A stretch of 64,000 bases of DNA from positions 124,001 through 188,000 of the forward strand of contig JACJID010000006.1 of NCBI GenBank assembly GCA_014138725.1. Direction: 5' to 3'. Positions 7,253 through 12,898 of the stretch are shown in pieces. Each line of letters begins with the position of its first letter. The stretch's first letter is position 1. A model generated the notes under the pieces. That model was not told the origin of the DNA and ran no database searches. It worked only from the letters and a program-made list of their open reading frames with translations. The position numbers and the translations under genes were made by a program. This DNA comes from Kutzneria viridogrisea. Lineage in GTDB: Bacteria > Actinomycetota > Actinomycetes > Mycobacteriales > Pseudonocardiaceae.

Positions 7253-8134
7253 ATGGCCGAGAAGCTGCGCCTGATGGCAGTGCACGCGCACCCCGACGAC
7301 GAGTCGAGCAAGGGTGCCGCGACGATGGCCCGCTACGTGGCCGAGGGCCACGAGGTGATGGTGGTCAGCTGCACCGGGGGCGAGCGCGGGGACGTGCTCA
7401 ACCCCGCGCTGGACAGGCCGGAGGTGCTGGCGAACCTCAGTGAGCTGCGCAAGCAGGAGATGGCCAACGCCGCGGCCATCCTGGGCGTGAGCCACCGCTG
7501 GCTGGGCTTCGTGGACTCGGGCCTGCCCGAGGGCGACCCGCTGCCCCCGCTGCCCGAGGGCTGCTTCGCGCTGGTGCCGCTGGAGGAGTCCGCCGAGGCG
7601 CTGGTGCGGGTGATCCGCGAGTTCCGCCCGCACGTCATCACCACCTACGACGAGAACGGCGGTTACCCGCACCCGGACCACATCCGCTGCCACGAGGTGT
7701 CCGTGGCCGCCTTCGACGCGGCCGGTGACCCGGACCGCTTCCCCGGGCAGGGCGAGCCCTGGCAGCCGCTGAAGCTGTACTACTCGCACGGCTTCTCCCG
7801 GGCCAAGCTGATCGCCTTCCACGAGGCGATGCTGGCCAGGGGCCTGGAGTCGCCCTACGAGGAGTGGCTGAAGAACTGGAAGGACGACCGCCCCGACGTG
7901 ATGGAGCGGGTCACCACCCAGGTCGAGTGCGCGGACTACTTCGACGTGGCCAAGGAGGCCCTGCGGGCGCACGCCACGCAGATCGATCCCGAGAGCCGCT
8001 GGTTCGCCGTACCCTTGGAGCTGCAGCGCGAGGTGTGGCCGACCGAGGAGTACGAGCTGGTGCGCTCCCTGGTGGACACCACGCTGCCTGAAGACGATCT
8101 GTTCGCCGGAGTACGAGAGAAGGTGCGCGTGTGA
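7253..8134 (+). CDS. mca: Mycothiol S-conjugate amidase
   Basis: A 293-residue zinc amidase that cleaves mycothiol-toxin conjugates to a mercapturic acid and GlcN-inositol. The zinc and catalytic motif AHPDDESS is at residues 12-19 and the second metal-site motif is [11 protein letters not shown]. The length is close to that of M. tuberculosis Mca, and the divergence from DUF4307 and overlap with a small membrane protein gene reproduce Rv1082-Rv1083. The close relative MshB has the same HPDD fold, but the genome context points to Mca. This gene is the main evidence that the host makes mycothiol. Confidence 0.95.
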
Positions 8135-8385
8135 CCGGACTGCCAGGGCTACCTGGCCCGGTGGTGGGTGTTCCCGTGGTCATCGCCGCAGGTCAGGGCG
8201 GTGACTCCGGGGGACAGGGGGAGGATTTCGGCAAGTCCACCCCGGTCGGGTTCGTGATCCTGCTGCTGTTCTTCGTGGCGGTGGCCTTCCTGGTCCGCTC
8301 GATGACCAAGCACCTCAAGCGGGTACCCGCGAGCTTCGACCAGCCCGAGCAGGACGCCGCACCGAAACCCACTGCCGAGGGCTAG
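8131..8385 (+). CDS. Small single-pass membrane protein (Rv1083-like)
   Basis: An 84-residue protein starting with GTG in a GTGA overlap with the mca stop. A Gly-rich N-terminus is followed by one transmembrane helix ([18 protein letters not shown], about residues 40-58) and a charged tail. Its position after mca is the same as Rv1083. The function is unknown. Confidence 0.8.
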
Positions 8386-8993
8386 TGGCCGACGAGGAGT
8401 TCACCAGGCTCTACGGGCCCTGGGAGGTGGTCGACCCCGTCGCTGCCGCGGCACTGTGCGAGGGCATGGACGCGCCCTGGTGGGTTGCCGGGGGCTGGGC
8501 CATCGAGGCGTACGCAGCCGTGCAACGTGAGCACGGCGACATCGACCTGGGCGTGTTCCGCCGCGACCTGCCCACGGTGCTGGAGCACTTCACCCGCACG
8601 CACCACGTGTGGGCGGCCGGGTCGGGTGCGCTCCAGCCGATCACCAAGCCGGAGGAGCTGCCCAGCTGGGCCACCCAGCTGTGGATCCGCGAGCACGCGG
8701 GCGGACCCTGGCTGCTGGATCTGCTGCTGACCGAGGACCGCGAGGGGGACTGGGTGTGCCGCCGCGACCCCACGGTGGTGCTGCCGCTGGACGAGGCGAC
8801 CTGGGTCTCCGGCGGGATCCGCTACCTGCGGCCCGAGTTCGTGCTGCTGTTCAAGGCCAAGCGCGCGCAGCCCCATGACGAGGCCGACCTGTCCGCCACC
8901 ATGCCCTGGCTGGACGCCGCGGGGCGGCACCGCTGCGTGGACCTAATCGGCCGTGTGCACCCCGGCCACCCCTGGCTCGACATGCTCAGCTAA
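8385..8993 (+). CDS. Nucleotidyltransferase-fold protein (aminoglycoside adenylyltransferase-like)
   Basis: A 202-residue protein whose GTG overlaps the previous stop (TAGTG). The motif GGWAIEAYAAVQREHGDID matches the GG...DxD active-site pattern of the pol-beta nucleotidyltransferase superfamily, closest in style to ANT(2'')-like proteins. The substrate is unknown and resistance should not be assumed. It is translationally coupled to the mca operon, yet lies outside the mycobacterial gene order, so it appears to be the left edge of an insert. The 21-bp repeat array begins 5 nt after its stop. Confidence 0.7.
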   Translation: MADEEFTRLYGPWEVVDPVAAAALCEGMDAPWWVAGGWAIEAYAAVQREHGDIDLGVFRRDLPTVLEHFTRTHHVWAAGSGALQPITKPEELPSWATQLWIREHAGGPWLLDLLLTEDREGDWVCRRDPTVVLPLDEATWVSGGIRYLRPEFVLLFKAKRAQPHDEADLSATMPWLDAAGRHRCVDLIGRVHPGHPWLDMLS

Positions 8994-8997
8994 CCCC

Positions 8998-9686
8998 GAG
9001 TCCCGCCCAGAGGCACGCGAGTCCCGCTCCGGTGCAGGCGAACCCCGTCCTGTCGCGTGTGAGTCCCGCTCCGGTGCAGGTGAGTCCCGTCCTGGCGAGC
9101 GCGAGTCCCGTTCTGCCGCGTGTGAGTCCCGCTGTGGCATAGGTGGGGCCCGTTCTGGCGCGCGAGTTCCGTTCTGCCGCGTGCGAGTCCCGCTCAGAGG
9201 CGTGCGAGTTCCGCCGTGTCGCGTGCGAGTTCCGCCCTGGCGTAGGCGGGGCCCGCCCAGGTGCGCGAGTCCCGTCCTGGCGAGCGCGAACCTCGGCCAG
9301 GTGCAGGTGAGTCCCGTTCTGCCGCAGGCGAGTTCCGCCCAGATGCAGGCGAGTCTCGTCCTGGTGTGCGTGAGTCCCGCTCCGGTGCAGGCGAGTCCCG
9401 TCCTAGCGTGCGCGAGTTCCGCCCAGGTGCGGGCGAACCCCGTCCTGGCGAGCGCGGGTCCCGTCGTGTCGTGCGCGAGTCCCGCCGGGGCGCAGGTGAG
9501 TCCCGCCCAGGTACTGGCCAGTTCCGTTCTGCCGCAGGCGAGTCCCGCTCCGTGCAGGCGAGTCCCGCCCAGGTGTAAGCGAGTCCCGTCCTAGCGAGCG
9601 CGAGTCCCACCCAGGTGCAGGCGAACCCCGCCCAGGTGCAGGCGAGTCCCGCCGTGAGCCTGGCCGGGTCCCGTCAAGTGCCGCCG
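8998..9686. repeat. Tandem array of 32 degenerate 21-bp repeats (GAGTCCCG minisatellite)
   Basis: Reading from 8998, 32 consecutive units fill 667 bp, plus a degenerate 33rd. Twenty-nine units are exactly 21 nt, two are 19 nt and one is 20 nt. Each begins with GAGTCCCG or a one- to three-base variant and ends in one of a few alternating tails (GGTGCAGGC, TGGCGAGCGC, TGCCGCGTGC). The 19- and 20-nt units break any heptad reading frame, so the open frames on both strands are an artefact of GC richness. The array fills the gap between two convergent genes and there is no other gene from 8994 to 9706. It is not CRISPR-like, as there are no unique spacers. Confidence 0.93.
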
Positions 9687-9706
9687 TGTTCACCTGGTGC
9701 GTGGGC

Positions 9707-10396
9707 TCACAACTCGCCCAGTGCGGAGCGGCGGCGCACGGAGATCAGCCAGCGCTCCACGGCCCCGGCGTCAGGGACGACGGGCAGCGGGGAGCGCAGG
9801 ACGGCGCTGGCGGTGCGGTCGCGCAGGTCCTCGACCCAGCTCAGCACGTCCTTCCACGGCACATCACCCTCCTTGACCGCCAGCAACTGCTCCCGGTGCG
9901 CGCCGACCGCGAGCACGAGTTCGCCGGTGCTCAGCAGTCGCTCGCACATCGTCAGCATGCGCAGCACGTGCATGACCTGCTTCCAGCGCGGTGTGCCGCC
10001 ACTGGCCATCGCGGCCGAGGCCCTGGCGAACTGCTGTGCGGTGGCCCGCCGGAAGCTGTCGGCCGCCCGCTGGGAGAGCAGCGCGGGCAGCAGGGCGCGC
10101 AGTTCCTTGCCCAGCGGGGTGCTCACCTGCACCAGGGGCGAGGCGAGCACCTCCAGCACGGTGGGGTTCGCCTTGATCGCCAGCGCGCAGAAGTGTTCGA
10201 CCTCCCAGTTGAGGCGTTCGACCCCAGGGCCGTCCACACTGGACGGTGGTTTGTCGAAGCCCCAGAAAAGTTCGGTCGGCGGCACGTACACGCCTCGAAT
10301 GTCCACATCGGACTCCTCGGTGTGCAGGCCGTACGCGCGCGAGCCGACGACAACCGAGAGCACGGTGTGCTCGCTCACCAACTCGTGTTCCTGCAC
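9707..10396 (-). CDS. rlaP: RNA-repair-associated pol-beta nucleotidyltransferase (RlaP-like)
   Basis: A 229-residue protein. Near the N-terminus GSRAYGLHTEESDVDIRGVY is the GS...DxD active site of the PF10127-type nucleotidyltransferases named RlaP (RNA-ligase-associated Pol-beta). The GTG at 10396 lies 3 nt after the pnkp stop, so it is the third gene of the hen1-pnkp-rlaP operon. It is predicted to add or remove nucleotides on damaged RNA ends before ligation; that role is inferred from family and context. Its stop faces the 21-bp repeat array. Confidence 0.8.
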   Translation of the reverse strand: MQEHELVSEHTVLSVVVGSRAYGLHTEESDVDIRGVYVPPTELFWGFDKPPSSVDGPGVERLNWEVEHFCALAIKANPTVLEVLASPLVQVSTPLGKELRALLPALLSQRAADSFRRATAQQFARASAAMASGGTPRWKQVMHVLRMLTMCERLLSTGELVLAVGAHREQLLAVKEGDVPWKDVLSWVEDLRDRTASAVLRSPLPVVPDAGAVERWLISVRRRSALGEL

Positions 10397-10399
10397 TTG

Positions 10400-12898
10400 T
10401 CACAACCTCGGGTCGACGGGCTCGGACTCCAGTGCCAGCACGGCGAAGACGCACTCGTGCACGCGCCACAGCGGCTCACCCGAGGTGAGTCGCCGCAGAC
10501 CCTCGATGCCGAGCATGTACTCGCGCAGCGCGAGTGAACGCTTCGTGCCGAGATTGCGCTTGCGCAGCCGGTCCAGGTTCGCCGGTTCGGTGTAGTCGGG
10601 GCCGTAGATGATGCGCAGGTACTCGCGGCCCCGCACCTTCACCCCTGGCTGCACCACGCCGCGCTTGCCGCGCACGAGGTTGGCCATCGGCTTGACGACC
10701 ATGCCCTCGCCGCCGTCCTCGGTCAGCTCCGACCACCAGCGCACGCCGGCGGCCACCGAGTCCGGGTTCCCGGTGTCGACGAGCAGGTTGTCCGTGGTGG
10801 CAACGAACTCCGGGTCCGCAGTGGACAGTCGGTTGAGCAGGTCGAGGTGCCAGGAGTGCGGCCGGTCGTGGTAGGTGCGGCCCTCGCTGGCGAGCACCTG
10901 GAACGGCGCCACGCGCATGCCGCGCAGGCCATCGGTCGGCCAGCAGTAGCGCCGGTACGCCGCCCGGAACGCGTCCGCGTTGTTGACTCTGGACTCGTTG
11001 CGCTGCAAGAGATCCGTGACATCGACTCCGCGATCAGCCGCTGCGCGCAACATATCGAGAGCTGCGGGCAACGCCGCACTGGCGGCTGCACCAACCGCCG
11101 CGTACTGCTCGCGGATGAGCGGCTCCGCCTTGGCGCTCCACGGCAGCAGTTCGGCGTCCAGCAGCAGCCAGTCGGTGGCCAGCTCCGACCAGAGCCCGGC
11201 CGCCGAGATGGCCGCCTGCAACCGCGCCAGCACCTGATCGGTCAACCGCTGGTCGAAGAACGCCCGCCCGGTCCGGGTGTGCACGGCCCCGCCGTCGCGG
11301 CGCACGAGCAGCACCGCCCGCGAGCCCATGTGCTTCTCCTCGCAGATCACCTCGCGCACGCCCGCCGCCAGGTAGCCCGCGAACGCCTCCTCCGGGTGCT
11401 CCAGCACATCGGCACGCTGCGAGGTGGCGGTCGGCGCCATGGTCGGCGGCAGGTACAGCAGCGAACCGGGCTCGATCGCGAACCGGCTCATCACCTCCAG
11501 CGCCGCCGCCGCGTTCTCCGCGCGCACGGTGATCCGCCCGTGCTCGGCCGTCTCCACGACCCGTTTGCCGAGCACGTCGGTCAGGTTCAGCTCGTCATCG
11601 GGCCGCACCGGGTTCACCGGCTGGAGCGGTCGCACCGGCTCGCACCAGACCTGTTGTGCCGCAACGGAGACCAGTTCGCCCTCCGGGTAACGCAGTGCGG
11701 TCAGCCGCCCACCGAACACGCAGCCGGTGTCCAGGCAGATCGTGTTGTTGACCCACTCGGCGTCCAGCACCGGCGTGTGCCCGTACACGACGGCAGCCGC
11801 GCCGCGGTAGTCGTTCGCCCATGGGTAGCGCACCGGCAGCCCGTACTCGTCGGTCTCGCCGGTGGACTCCCCGTACAGCGCGAAGCTGCGCACACGGCCG
11901 GACGCCCGGCCCTGGAACCGCTCGGGCAGCCCGGCGTGCGCCACCACCAGCTTGCCGCCGTCCAGCACGTAGTGCGACACCAGGTCGTAGCAGAACTGCT
12001 CGGCCAGCTTGCGGAACTCCGCCGACTCCGCGGACAACTGCGCCAGCGACTCGGCCAGGCCGTGCGCCACGGTGACCTTCTTGCCACGCAGTGCCCGCAC
12101 CAGTTTCTGCTCGTGGTTGCCGCACACGCACATCGCCGTGCCCGCCGCGACCATGCCCATCACCAGCCGCAGCACACCAGGCGTGTCCGGGCCGCGGTCG
12201 ACCAGGTCACCGACGAACAGCGCGCGGCGTCCCCGCGGGTGCGCCGCGCCCACCGGCCTGCCCTCGGCGTCCCGCTCGACCAGGTAGCCCAGCTCTGCCA
12301 GCAACTGCTCCAACTCGGCCCGGCAGCCGTGCACGTCACCGATGACGTCGAACGGGCCGGTGTCCGCACGCCTGTCGTTGAGCAGCGGCTCCCGCACGAG
12401 CACCGTCTCGGCCACCTCCTCCGGCGAGCGCAGCACGTGCACCCGGCGGAACCCCTCCTTCTCCAAGTGGCGCAAGGACTTGTGCAGATCGGCGCGCTGC
12501 CTGCGCAGCACGTGCGCGCCGAAGTCGCGGTCCGGCCGCTCCGCGTTGCGCCGCAGGCACAGGCCCTCGGGCATGTCCAGCACGATCGCCACCGGCAGCA
12601 CGTCGTGCTCGCGCGCGAGGGCGACAAGTTGCGCGCGGCCCTCGCGCTGCACGTTCGTCGCGTCGACCACGGTCAGCCGTCCGGCGGCCAGCCGCTTGCC
12701 CGCGATGTAGTGCAGCACGTCGATGGCGTCCTTGGTGGCCGACTGGTCGTTGGGGTCATCGCTGACCAGTCCGCGGCAGTGGTCGCTGGAGACCACCTCG
12801 GTGGCGCGGAAATGCCTGGCCGCGAAGGTGGACTTGCCCGATCCGGAGACGCCGACGAGCGCGATCAGCGCCAGTTGCGGGATGCCGAGCCGACTCAT
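10400..12898 (-). CDS. pnkp: Bacterial polynucleotide kinase-phosphatase-ligase (RNA repair)
   Basis: An 832-residue, three-domain RNA repair enzyme. The N-terminal kinase has the P-loop GVSGSGKS at residues 16-23. The central metallophosphatase shows DVIGDVHG at about 182, GDLVDRGPD at about 228 and GNHE at about 260. The C-terminal ligase/adenylyltransferase carries the nucleotidyl lysine motif EEKHMGSR at about 515. In the characterised system Pnkp heals 5'-OH and 2',3'-cyclic phosphate ends and seals RNA together with Hen1, giving repair of ribotoxin-cut tRNA. The ATG at 12898 overlaps the hen1 stop (ATGA). The length is near that of the Clostridium thermocellum enzyme. Confidence 0.95.
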   Translation of the reverse strand: MSRLGIPQLALIALVGVSGSGKSTFAARHFRATEVVSSDHCRGLVSDDPNDQSATKDAIDVLHYIAGKRLAAGRLTVVDATNVQREGRAQLVALAREHDVLPVAIVLDMPEGLCLRRNAERPDRDFGAHVLRRQRADLHKSLRHLEKEGFRRVHVLRSPEEVAETVLVREPLLNDRRADTGPFDVIGDVHGCRAELEQLLAELGYLVERDAEGRPVGAAHPRGRRALFVGDLVDRGPDTPGVLRLVMGMVAAGTAMCVCGNHEQKLVRALRGKKVTVAHGLAESLAQLSAESAEFRKLAEQFCYDLVSHYVLDGGKLVVAHAGLPERFQGRASGRVRSFALYGESTGETDEYGLPVRYPWANDYRGAAAVVYGHTPVLDAEWVNNTICLDTGCVFGGRLTALRYPEGELVSVAAQQVWCEPVRPLQPVNPVRPDDELNLTDVLGKRVVETAEHGRITVRAENAAAALEVMSRFAIEPGSLLYLPPTMAPTATSQRADVLEHPEEAFAGYLAAGVREVICEEKHMGSRAVLLVRRDGGAVHTRTGRAFFDQRLTDQVLARLQAAISAAGLWSELATDWLLLDAELLPWSAKAEPLIREQYAAVGAAASAALPAALDMLRAAADRGVDVTDLLQRNESRVNNADAFRAAYRRYCWPTDGLRGMRVAPFQVLASEGRTYHDRPHSWHLDLLNRLSTADPEFVATTDNLLVDTGNPDSVAAGVRWWSELTEDGGEGMVVKPMANLVRGKRGVVQPGVKVRGREYLRIIYGPDYTEPANLDRLRKRNLGTKRSLALREYMLGIEGLRRLTSGEPLWRVHECVFAVLALESEPVDPRL

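What the first reader, a model, noticed from the sequence alone, without database searches (positions are those of the whole stretch)
8998..9686. Array of 32 tandem 21-bp repeats, two helical turns per unit, between two nucleotidyltransferase genes
The gap between a convergent ANT-like gene and rlaP is wholly made of GAGTCCCG-led units: 29 of exactly 21 nt, two of 19 and one of 20. Twenty-one bp is two turns of B-DNA, so the conserved octamer recurs on one face of the helix. The short units break any heptad reading frame, so coding is unlikely. A few tail variants alternate, suggesting unequal exchange of larger blocks. A protein-binding array, a 3'-end element for both convergent genes, or a recombination-prone minisatellite are all possible. 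I know of no named family for it.
Basis: partly seen in the sequence, partly recalled or inferred. Interest (0 to 1): 0.72.

Follow-up and report, generated by a model that had tools for sequence, protein, structure and literature searches.

The report
Helix-phased repeat arrays at gene ends
A run of 32 short DNA repeats between two genes turns out to be one of an estimated several hundred such runs in this bacterium, with similar runs in related genera, mostly placed just after genes end and spaced so that the copies probably face one side of the DNA helix, which suggests an unnamed protein-binding marker that separates neighbouring genes.

Summary
In detail: 32 units at 8998-9664 (28 steps of 21 bp, two of 19, one of 20). 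It is not a lone curiosity. In 2.06 Mb sampled by position from the same 10.25-Mb genome there are 77 such arrays, extrapolating to about 380. They occupy 32 of 140 convergent, 22 of 497 co-oriented and 2 of 283 divergent gaps, often close to stop codons and never within 30 bp of a start. Similar arrays occur in other genera, including named Amycolatopsis and Pseudonocardia. Sister species carry palindromes sharing the end GCGAGTCCCGC, often in the same niche. The array is non-coding and its RNA folds no better than shuffled sequence. The octamer, G16, G20 and 21-bp spacing are kept while other columns vary. Opposite-strand copies tend to lie in steps of about 10.5 bp in two genera. Best reading: a helix-phased, protein-bound 3'-end element separating neighbouring transcription units. 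Anatomy and placement are shown; protein and function are inferred. Nearest in niche are REP/BIME repeats, but two defining features tested are not met.

The parts
8998..9664 (+). array of 32 units, consensus GAGTCCCG-N7-G-N3-G-Y, period 21 bp
9665..9686 (+). degenerate remnant after the last unit (CGGGTCCCGTC...), not counted as a unit
8991..8997 (+). stop codon TAA plus CCCC leading straight into the first unit; a similar stop-plus-C-run lead-in precedes most of the G005 palindromes (such as TGAACCCCC-GCGAGTCCCGC)
8385..8993 (+). upstream flanking gene, aminoglycoside-2''-adenylyltransferase-like (PF10706, 26 bits); its stop codon ends 4 bp before the array
9707..10396 (-). convergent flanking gene, RlaP family (PF10127, 97 bits)

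Best explanation
The array is one copy of a family of 3'-end elements found in several genera of this bacterial family. Each 21-bp unit carries a conserved site, (GC)GAGTCCCG plus two nearly fixed G's. Units are held two helical turns apart, and inverted units tend to keep helical register, so sites would face one side of the DNA. I infer that an unidentified DNA-binding protein covers the array cooperatively and forms a nucleoprotein block just after stop codons. This would stop or separate transcription, mainly between convergent genes, where sister species often carry a palindrome that can form an RNA hairpin. Shown: family, placement, constrained core and spacing, lack of coding and of RNA structure in the window array. 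Supported but not settled: helical register of inverted copies. Inferred: a bound protein and its role as roadblock or insulator.
For: Abundance: 77 arrays in 2.06 Mb, about 380 if extrapolated; 477+563 exact two-unit matches in the genome against 0 for the reversed pattern. Placement: 32/140 convergent, 22/497 co-oriented, 2/283 divergent gaps; Fisher convergent against divergent 9e-15; 46 of 86 stop-side distances are at most 30 bp, 0 of 26 start-side. Core: within-array mismatch 0.11 in columns 1-8, 0.155 at G16, 0.151 at G20, against 0.51 over ten other columns; window alone 0.17 against 0.49. Register: 49 g16 '-+' distances, best period 10.5, R 0.92; merged by me into six classes (21, 31, 42, 51, 63, 105) R 0.947, reached by 5 of 20000 random sets. 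Own genome: 12 array-to-array '+-' distances, R 0.77 at 10.5, p 0.00016 (10 distinct values p 0.0027); the 9 from stretches taken by position, R 0.885, p 0.0001; control motif R 0.20, n 42. Not RNA: window array fold z +0.56 and -1.44.
Against: No protein is known to bind. If arms gain or lose whole 21-bp units, the inverted distances reduce to about two classes per genus half a period apart, so the independent evidence for 10.5-bp register is moderate. The six g16 '+-' distances show no such period (R 0.28). '-+' junctions of the own genome are almost all 22 bp (9 of 11) and add no information. Genus g9 keeps 22 bp, and in sister species only 9 of 19 listed same-strand pairs are 21 apart, the rest 22-25. 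Most listed sister palindromes are out of the own-genome phase (lengths). A repeat tolerated only away from promoters would also collect at 3' ends. Array finding favours the octamer, which inflates columns 1-8, though less so G16 and G20.
Confidence: 0.45

Rival explanations
1. A terminator acting through RNA: inverted arms form hairpins in both transcripts of a convergent pair, and one-armed arrays are expanded or decayed forms.
For: Of 20 palindrome sites read in G005, 13 are convergent, and 9 of these have stop codons 5-20 bp away on both sides. Seven palindromes folded (six of G005, one of G003) give z -10.3 to -14.7. Some own-genome arrays come as inverted pairs (17 junctions).
Against: The window array has no inverted partner core within its gap and folds no better than shuffles. 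Arms of one element are no more complementary than arms of random elements: g16 6.74 against 7.10 of 11 positions, G005 15.60 against 16.87 of 23. No T-run in the 46 bp after the window array.
Confidence: 0.25
2. A non-functional, self-spreading interspersed repeat, tolerated only downstream of genes where no promoter is hit.
For: Patchy distribution: G004 of the same genus has no palindrome match, sister species have few two-unit matches, 11 of 397 order genomes hold three-unit arrays. REP repeats show the same preference for convergent gaps (PMC1525189, passages).
Against: Position-specific conservation with nearly free columns beside it, and few spacing changes. No PF01797 (Y1 transposase) hit in the genome; other transposases were not searched.
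Confidence: 0.22
3. A minisatellite made by slippage and unequal exchange, without function.
For: Tandem structure, with arrays of 24, 25 and 32 units and one 52-unit chain that bridges degenerate sequence.
Against: Units are hardly homogenised within arrays (0.489 against 0.451), no lag structure in the window array, constant 21-22 bp spacing in four genera looked at.
Confidence: 0.06
4. Part of a protein-coding repeat with a seven-residue period.
For: Period divisible by three; open frames exist.
Against: Codon scores negative in six of six frames, stops in each, and 19- and 20-bp units shift the frame.
Confidence: 0.01

Closest known systems
REP sequences and BIMEs (bacterial interspersed mosaic elements)
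   Same: High copy number, extragenic, gene 3' ends and convergent gaps, sometimes inverted arrangement
   Different: The window array is a one-direction tandem array without a palindrome; fixed two-turn period; no PF01797 (Y1/RAYT) hit in the genome
Plasmid iterons (properties recalled; only a search listing seen)
   Same: Direct repeats about two helical turns apart with a constrained core; works like a phased operator array
   Different: Dispersed over a chromosome at gene ends, not at one replication origin; no Rep protein shown
Bidirectional intrinsic terminators
   Same: Position close to stop codons, between convergent genes; seven of seven sister-species palindromes folded form strong hairpins
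   Different: The window array has no significant RNA fold and no T-run after it
Heptamer tandem repeats (GAGTCCC)n
   Same: Same letters, and 21 is three times 7
   Different: Runs of 7-bp units, seen in Microbulbifer and proteobacterial metagenome genomes; no 13-bp variable segment

Membership tests
REP/BIME | high copy number (more than 100 per genome; PMC2817692, passages) | tested here: met
   77 arrays in 2.06 Mb, about 380 if extrapolated
REP/BIME | extragenic location | tested here: met
   75 of 77 arrays lie in gaps between called genes; the other 2 are one place (my own gene caller)
REP/BIME | each repeat contains an imperfect palindrome | tested here: not met
   window array: no opposite-strand core within one mismatch at 8500-10200, fold z +0.56 and -1.44; met by the sister-species palindromes folded
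REP/BIME | cognate RAYT (Y1 family) transposase in the genome | tested here: not met
   PF01797: 0 matches in the own genome; 1 of 7 genus genomes (G003) has a short partial hit
REP/BIME | GTAG/GGAG-type foot beside the hairpin (GTAG in the table of PMC2817692; GGAG recalled) | tested here: inconclusive
   flanks show a C-run beside the first site and no GTAG foot by eye; not counted, and GGAG occurs inside units
REP/BIME | binding of gyrase, IHF or Pol I | not testable with these tools
   needs biochemistry
Intrinsic terminator | stable RNA hairpin beyond chance | tested here: not met
   window array; met for 7 of 7 sister palindromes folded
Iteron array | direct repeats at about two helical turns with a conserved core (recalled) | tested here: met
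   416 of 435 steps 21 bp; core conservation
Iteron array | located at a replication origin next to a Rep gene (recalled) | tested here: not met
   dispersed over many gaps; window flanks are PF10706 and RlaP genes; Rep genes were not searched
CRISPR array | longer, nearly identical repeats separated by unique spacers (recalled) | tested here: not met
   8-bp core inside a 21-bp unit, imperfect copies; cas genes were not searched

The most novel reading that the evidence does not exclude
A chromosome-wide system of helix-phased operator arrays, kept in several genera of this family, in which a dedicated DNA-binding protein builds a nucleoprotein barrier at about a quarter of convergent gene junctions, replacing RNA hairpins as the device that separates facing transcription units or absorbs supercoiling between them.
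Probability: 0.3. Interest if true: 0.82.

Novelty: new variant of a known kind. Interest (0 to 1): 0.66.

Why it matters
Overlapping read-through between convergent genes is described as common in Streptomyces (PMC3765725, passages), and how actinomycetes end transcripts seems to me poorly settled. A family of elements close to stop codons, in 32 of 140 sampled convergent gaps, makes that testable, and its fixed spacing predicts a binding protein that could be fished out with the array itself. Amycolatopsis and Pseudonocardia are antibiotic producers (recalled), so such elements might also serve as natural insulators in engineered gene clusters.

Tried and rejected
Coding: rejected by codon scores and frame shifts. 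RNA ladder in the window array: not supported. Known RNA family: one chance-level hit (E 0.38) in window 7500-11000 outside the array, none at gathering score in 8 relatives' loci. REP-type mobilisation: no PF01797 hit in the own genome. Plasmid or phage origin: no match to the array in either collection (low-complexity filter on). Block exchange in the window array: no signal. An orthologue test with the gene beside a 24-unit array failed, because the gene belongs to a large paralogous family. The first script for mutual information stopped on a division and was rerun; the strongest couplings are between neighbouring columns and show no clear base-pairing excess. Paper searches: searches returned no paper; the listings (15 of 1,142; 15 of 18; 20 of 9,893; 10 of 39) show none on this repeat by title and start of abstract. 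They cover open-licence PMC papers only and the lists are capped, so absence from print is not shown. The REP survey PMC12306157 does not contain the words Amycolatopsis or Pseudonocardia (word search). A smaller sample gave weaker placement statistics: 5/45 convergent, 11/153 co-oriented, 1/117 divergent gaps; an earlier count by array rather than by gap was 19 convergent, 23 co-oriented, 5 divergent of 47. My gene caller missed some DUF222-HNH genes: I added four by hand and three; later stretches were not checked for such misses. The organism could not be named, and that genus g16 is Amycolatopsis and family f1 Pseudonocardiaceae is inference (named species).

Full report
The array is real. 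Tandem Repeats Finder reports it, and a profile made from 21-bp units of own-genome arrays (196 units; matrix made and applied) finds one array of 32 units at 8998-9664. Its score is 465.5, against best chance scores of 11.7 in 400 kb of reversed and 17.3 in 400 kb of shuffled own sequence; the window's own units were in the training set. Steps are 21 (28 times), 19 (twice) and 20 (once), and 17 of 32 octamers are exact. It begins 4 bp after the stop codon of a PF10706 gene, as TAA-CCCC-GAGTCCCG, and lies before a convergent RlaP gene.

It is one of many. The own genome (10.25 Mb, 11 contigs) holds 477 forward and 563 reverse matches to GAGTCCCG-N13-GAGTCCCG, and none to the reversed pattern. 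In 2,064,000 bases taken by position plus the window, there are 77 arrays, which extrapolates to about 380 per genome and 0.52% of bases; 416 of 435 steps are exactly 21 bp. Ten own-genome stretches chosen for their arrays are not in these counts, but they are in the unit statistics and partly in the junction lists.

Placement is strong. Of gaps of at least 60 bp, arrays occupy 32 of 140 convergent, 22 of 497 co-oriented and 2 of 283 divergent ones (Fisher convergent against divergent, 9e-15). Of 86 stop-side distances 46 are at most 30 bp (some arrays overlap the called stop); of 26 start-side distances none is. Two of 77 arrays, both at one place, fell outside called gaps. A smaller sample gave the same direction with less force. 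Genes were called by my own codon-score script, not by a standard annotator.

Sister species show what may be the older form. Of 20 sites read in G005, 13 are convergent and 7 co-oriented; 9 of the 13 have stop codons 5-20 bp away on both sides. Eighteen further loci of the genus, three of them the same places, are less tidy: 8 convergent, 7 co-oriented, 3 divergent. The lead-in at most G005 sites is a stop codon and a run of C, as at the window array. Seven palindromes folded, six of G005 and one of G003, give z scores from -10.3 to -14.7. At the window locus itself none of the six mates shows the array within the 900 bp read after the flanking gene; gene content there differs, and in G003 such a palindrome lies about 400 bp downstream.

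Beyond the genus, the three-unit pattern GCGAGTNNCG every 21 bp occurs in 11 of 397 genomes of the order (own included), in 5 of 86 genera, all of the same family; seven of the eleven are of genus g16, and one (G154) has near-identical repeats inside an open frame and is probably unrelated. The reversed control hits four other genomes. In a phylum sample only 2 of 396 match: the own genome and one with plain 7-bp runs. By eye three are Amycolatopsis and four Pseudonocardia arrays, both of Pseudonocardiaceae, one is a Spirochaetaceae and one a Solirubrobacteraceae metagenome genome, and five are runs of about 7-bp GAGTCCC units. The second half of the unit differs by genus: Amycolatopsis and genus g16 use CACGCGAGT-N12. 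That g16 is Amycolatopsis is my inference.

The unit is constrained by position. In 206 interior units of 31 arrays, taken by register, within-array mismatch (arrays with at least four such units) averages 0.11 in columns 1-8, 0.155 at G16 and 0.151 at G20, but 0.51 over ten variable columns; the commonest base of column 17 reaches only 0.33. In the window alone it is 0.17 against 0.49. In the variable columns, units of the same array match at 0.489, units of different arrays at 0.451. So arrays are not freshly copied, yet the core stays. The scan favours the octamer, which inflates columns 1-8; G16 and G20 were not part of the first octamer seed and stood at 95% and 91% there.

Spacing looks helical. 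In 60 loci fetched from that listing (40 of G450, 20 of G150), 74 of 75 '++' and 54 of 57 '--' neighbours are 21 apart, the others 42 or, once, 94. The 49 '-+' neighbours lie at 21, 31, 41-44, 51, 62-64 and 105 bp; the best period is 10.5 (R 0.92), and the six classes into which I merged them reach R 0.947, which 5 of 20000 random sets do. The six '+-' distances of g16 do not follow (R 0.28). In the own genome the 12 array-to-array '+-' distances are 18, 27, 28, 28, 38, 38, 50, 58, 79, 81, 91 and 108 (R 0.77, p 0.00016; distinct values p 0.0027; best period 10.3); one overlapping pair at -3 was dropped. The 9 from stretches taken by position give R 0.885, p 0.0001. Including single cores, n is 27 with R 0.617 (19 distinct values p 0.011), and a control motif gives R 0.20 with n 42.

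Caveats on register. If arms lose or gain whole units, the distances collapse to about two classes per genus half a period apart, so the independent support for 10.5 bp is moderate. In the own genome 9 of 11 '-+' junctions are 22 bp. Genus g9 (G014) uses 22-bp steps, with '+-' at 27-30 bp. In the sister species only 9 of 19 listed same-strand pairs are 21 apart, the rest 22, 23 or 25, and most palindrome core distances are out of the own-genome phase.

RNA is not the likely medium in the window array: 300 nt of the + strand folds at z +0.56 (140 of 200 shuffles as good) and 311 nt of the - strand at z -1.44 (8 of 100). Arms of one element are no more complementary than arms of random elements; in G005 they are less so (4998 of 5000 shuffles reach the observed value). 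Perfect palindromes may be avoided because they are unstable; that is inference.

Comparison with the known. By niche it resembles REP/BIME repeats, which are described as frequent between convergent genes (PMC1525189, passages) and as binding gyrase and IHF (PMC2817692, passages). But the window array lacks a palindrome and the genome has no PF01797 hit. It works more like an iteron array, but is not at an origin. Paper searches showed nothing on it in what they listed; only open-licence PMC papers were searched and the lists are capped. I conclude: anatomy, family and placement well shown; DNA-level phasing supported; the bound protein and the insulating role inferred.

Noticed in passing
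L014:2427-4719 (G000:C1:22427-24719); also G000:C1 near 243096, 304220, 326918, 344070, and L043, L044: Composite clusters beside repeated genes, one checked as DUF222-HNH by Pfam and the others alike by eye (13E12-like, name recalled): 21-bp arrays, a roughly 150-bp long-hairpin element GGGTTGGTTTGGTGCGGGT..., and a second tandem repeat of about 22 bp (GTGTCGGACGTT...).
   Followed up: partly
L114-L133 (G005) and L191-L250 (G450, G150): The two arms of one palindromic element are less alike than arms of random elements (clearly in G005, slightly in g16), as if two arm types were paired or perfect palindromes avoided.
   Followed up: partly
G004 (same genus, 4.7 Mb): No palindrome match and no excess of GCGAGTCCCGC (3 and 4, control 6 and 5), unlike the six other genomes of the genus; a natural absence useful for finding a binding protein.
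   Followed up: no
L085 (Spirochaetaceae metagenome genome): A 21-bp array with GCGAGTCCCGCGTTTGGTYRT units far outside the family; transfer, mis-binning or convergence not tested.
   Followed up: no
L080, L084, L088, L090, L091, L042: Runs of about 7-bp GAGTCCC units in Microbulbifer, proteobacterial metagenome genomes and G001; same letters, different repeat.
   Followed up: partly
L144 (G154:C1:5341116-5341356): Near-identical 21-bp repeats GCGAGTCCCGTCCAGCAGTCG; my gene caller put them inside an open frame, so probably coding and unrelated.
   Followed up: no
L181 (G450, near 599928): A long separate hairpin AAGTACATGAAGGCCCCCTTCATTGCG... lies just upstream of the phased element, possibly another dispersed repeat of that genus.
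   Followed up: no
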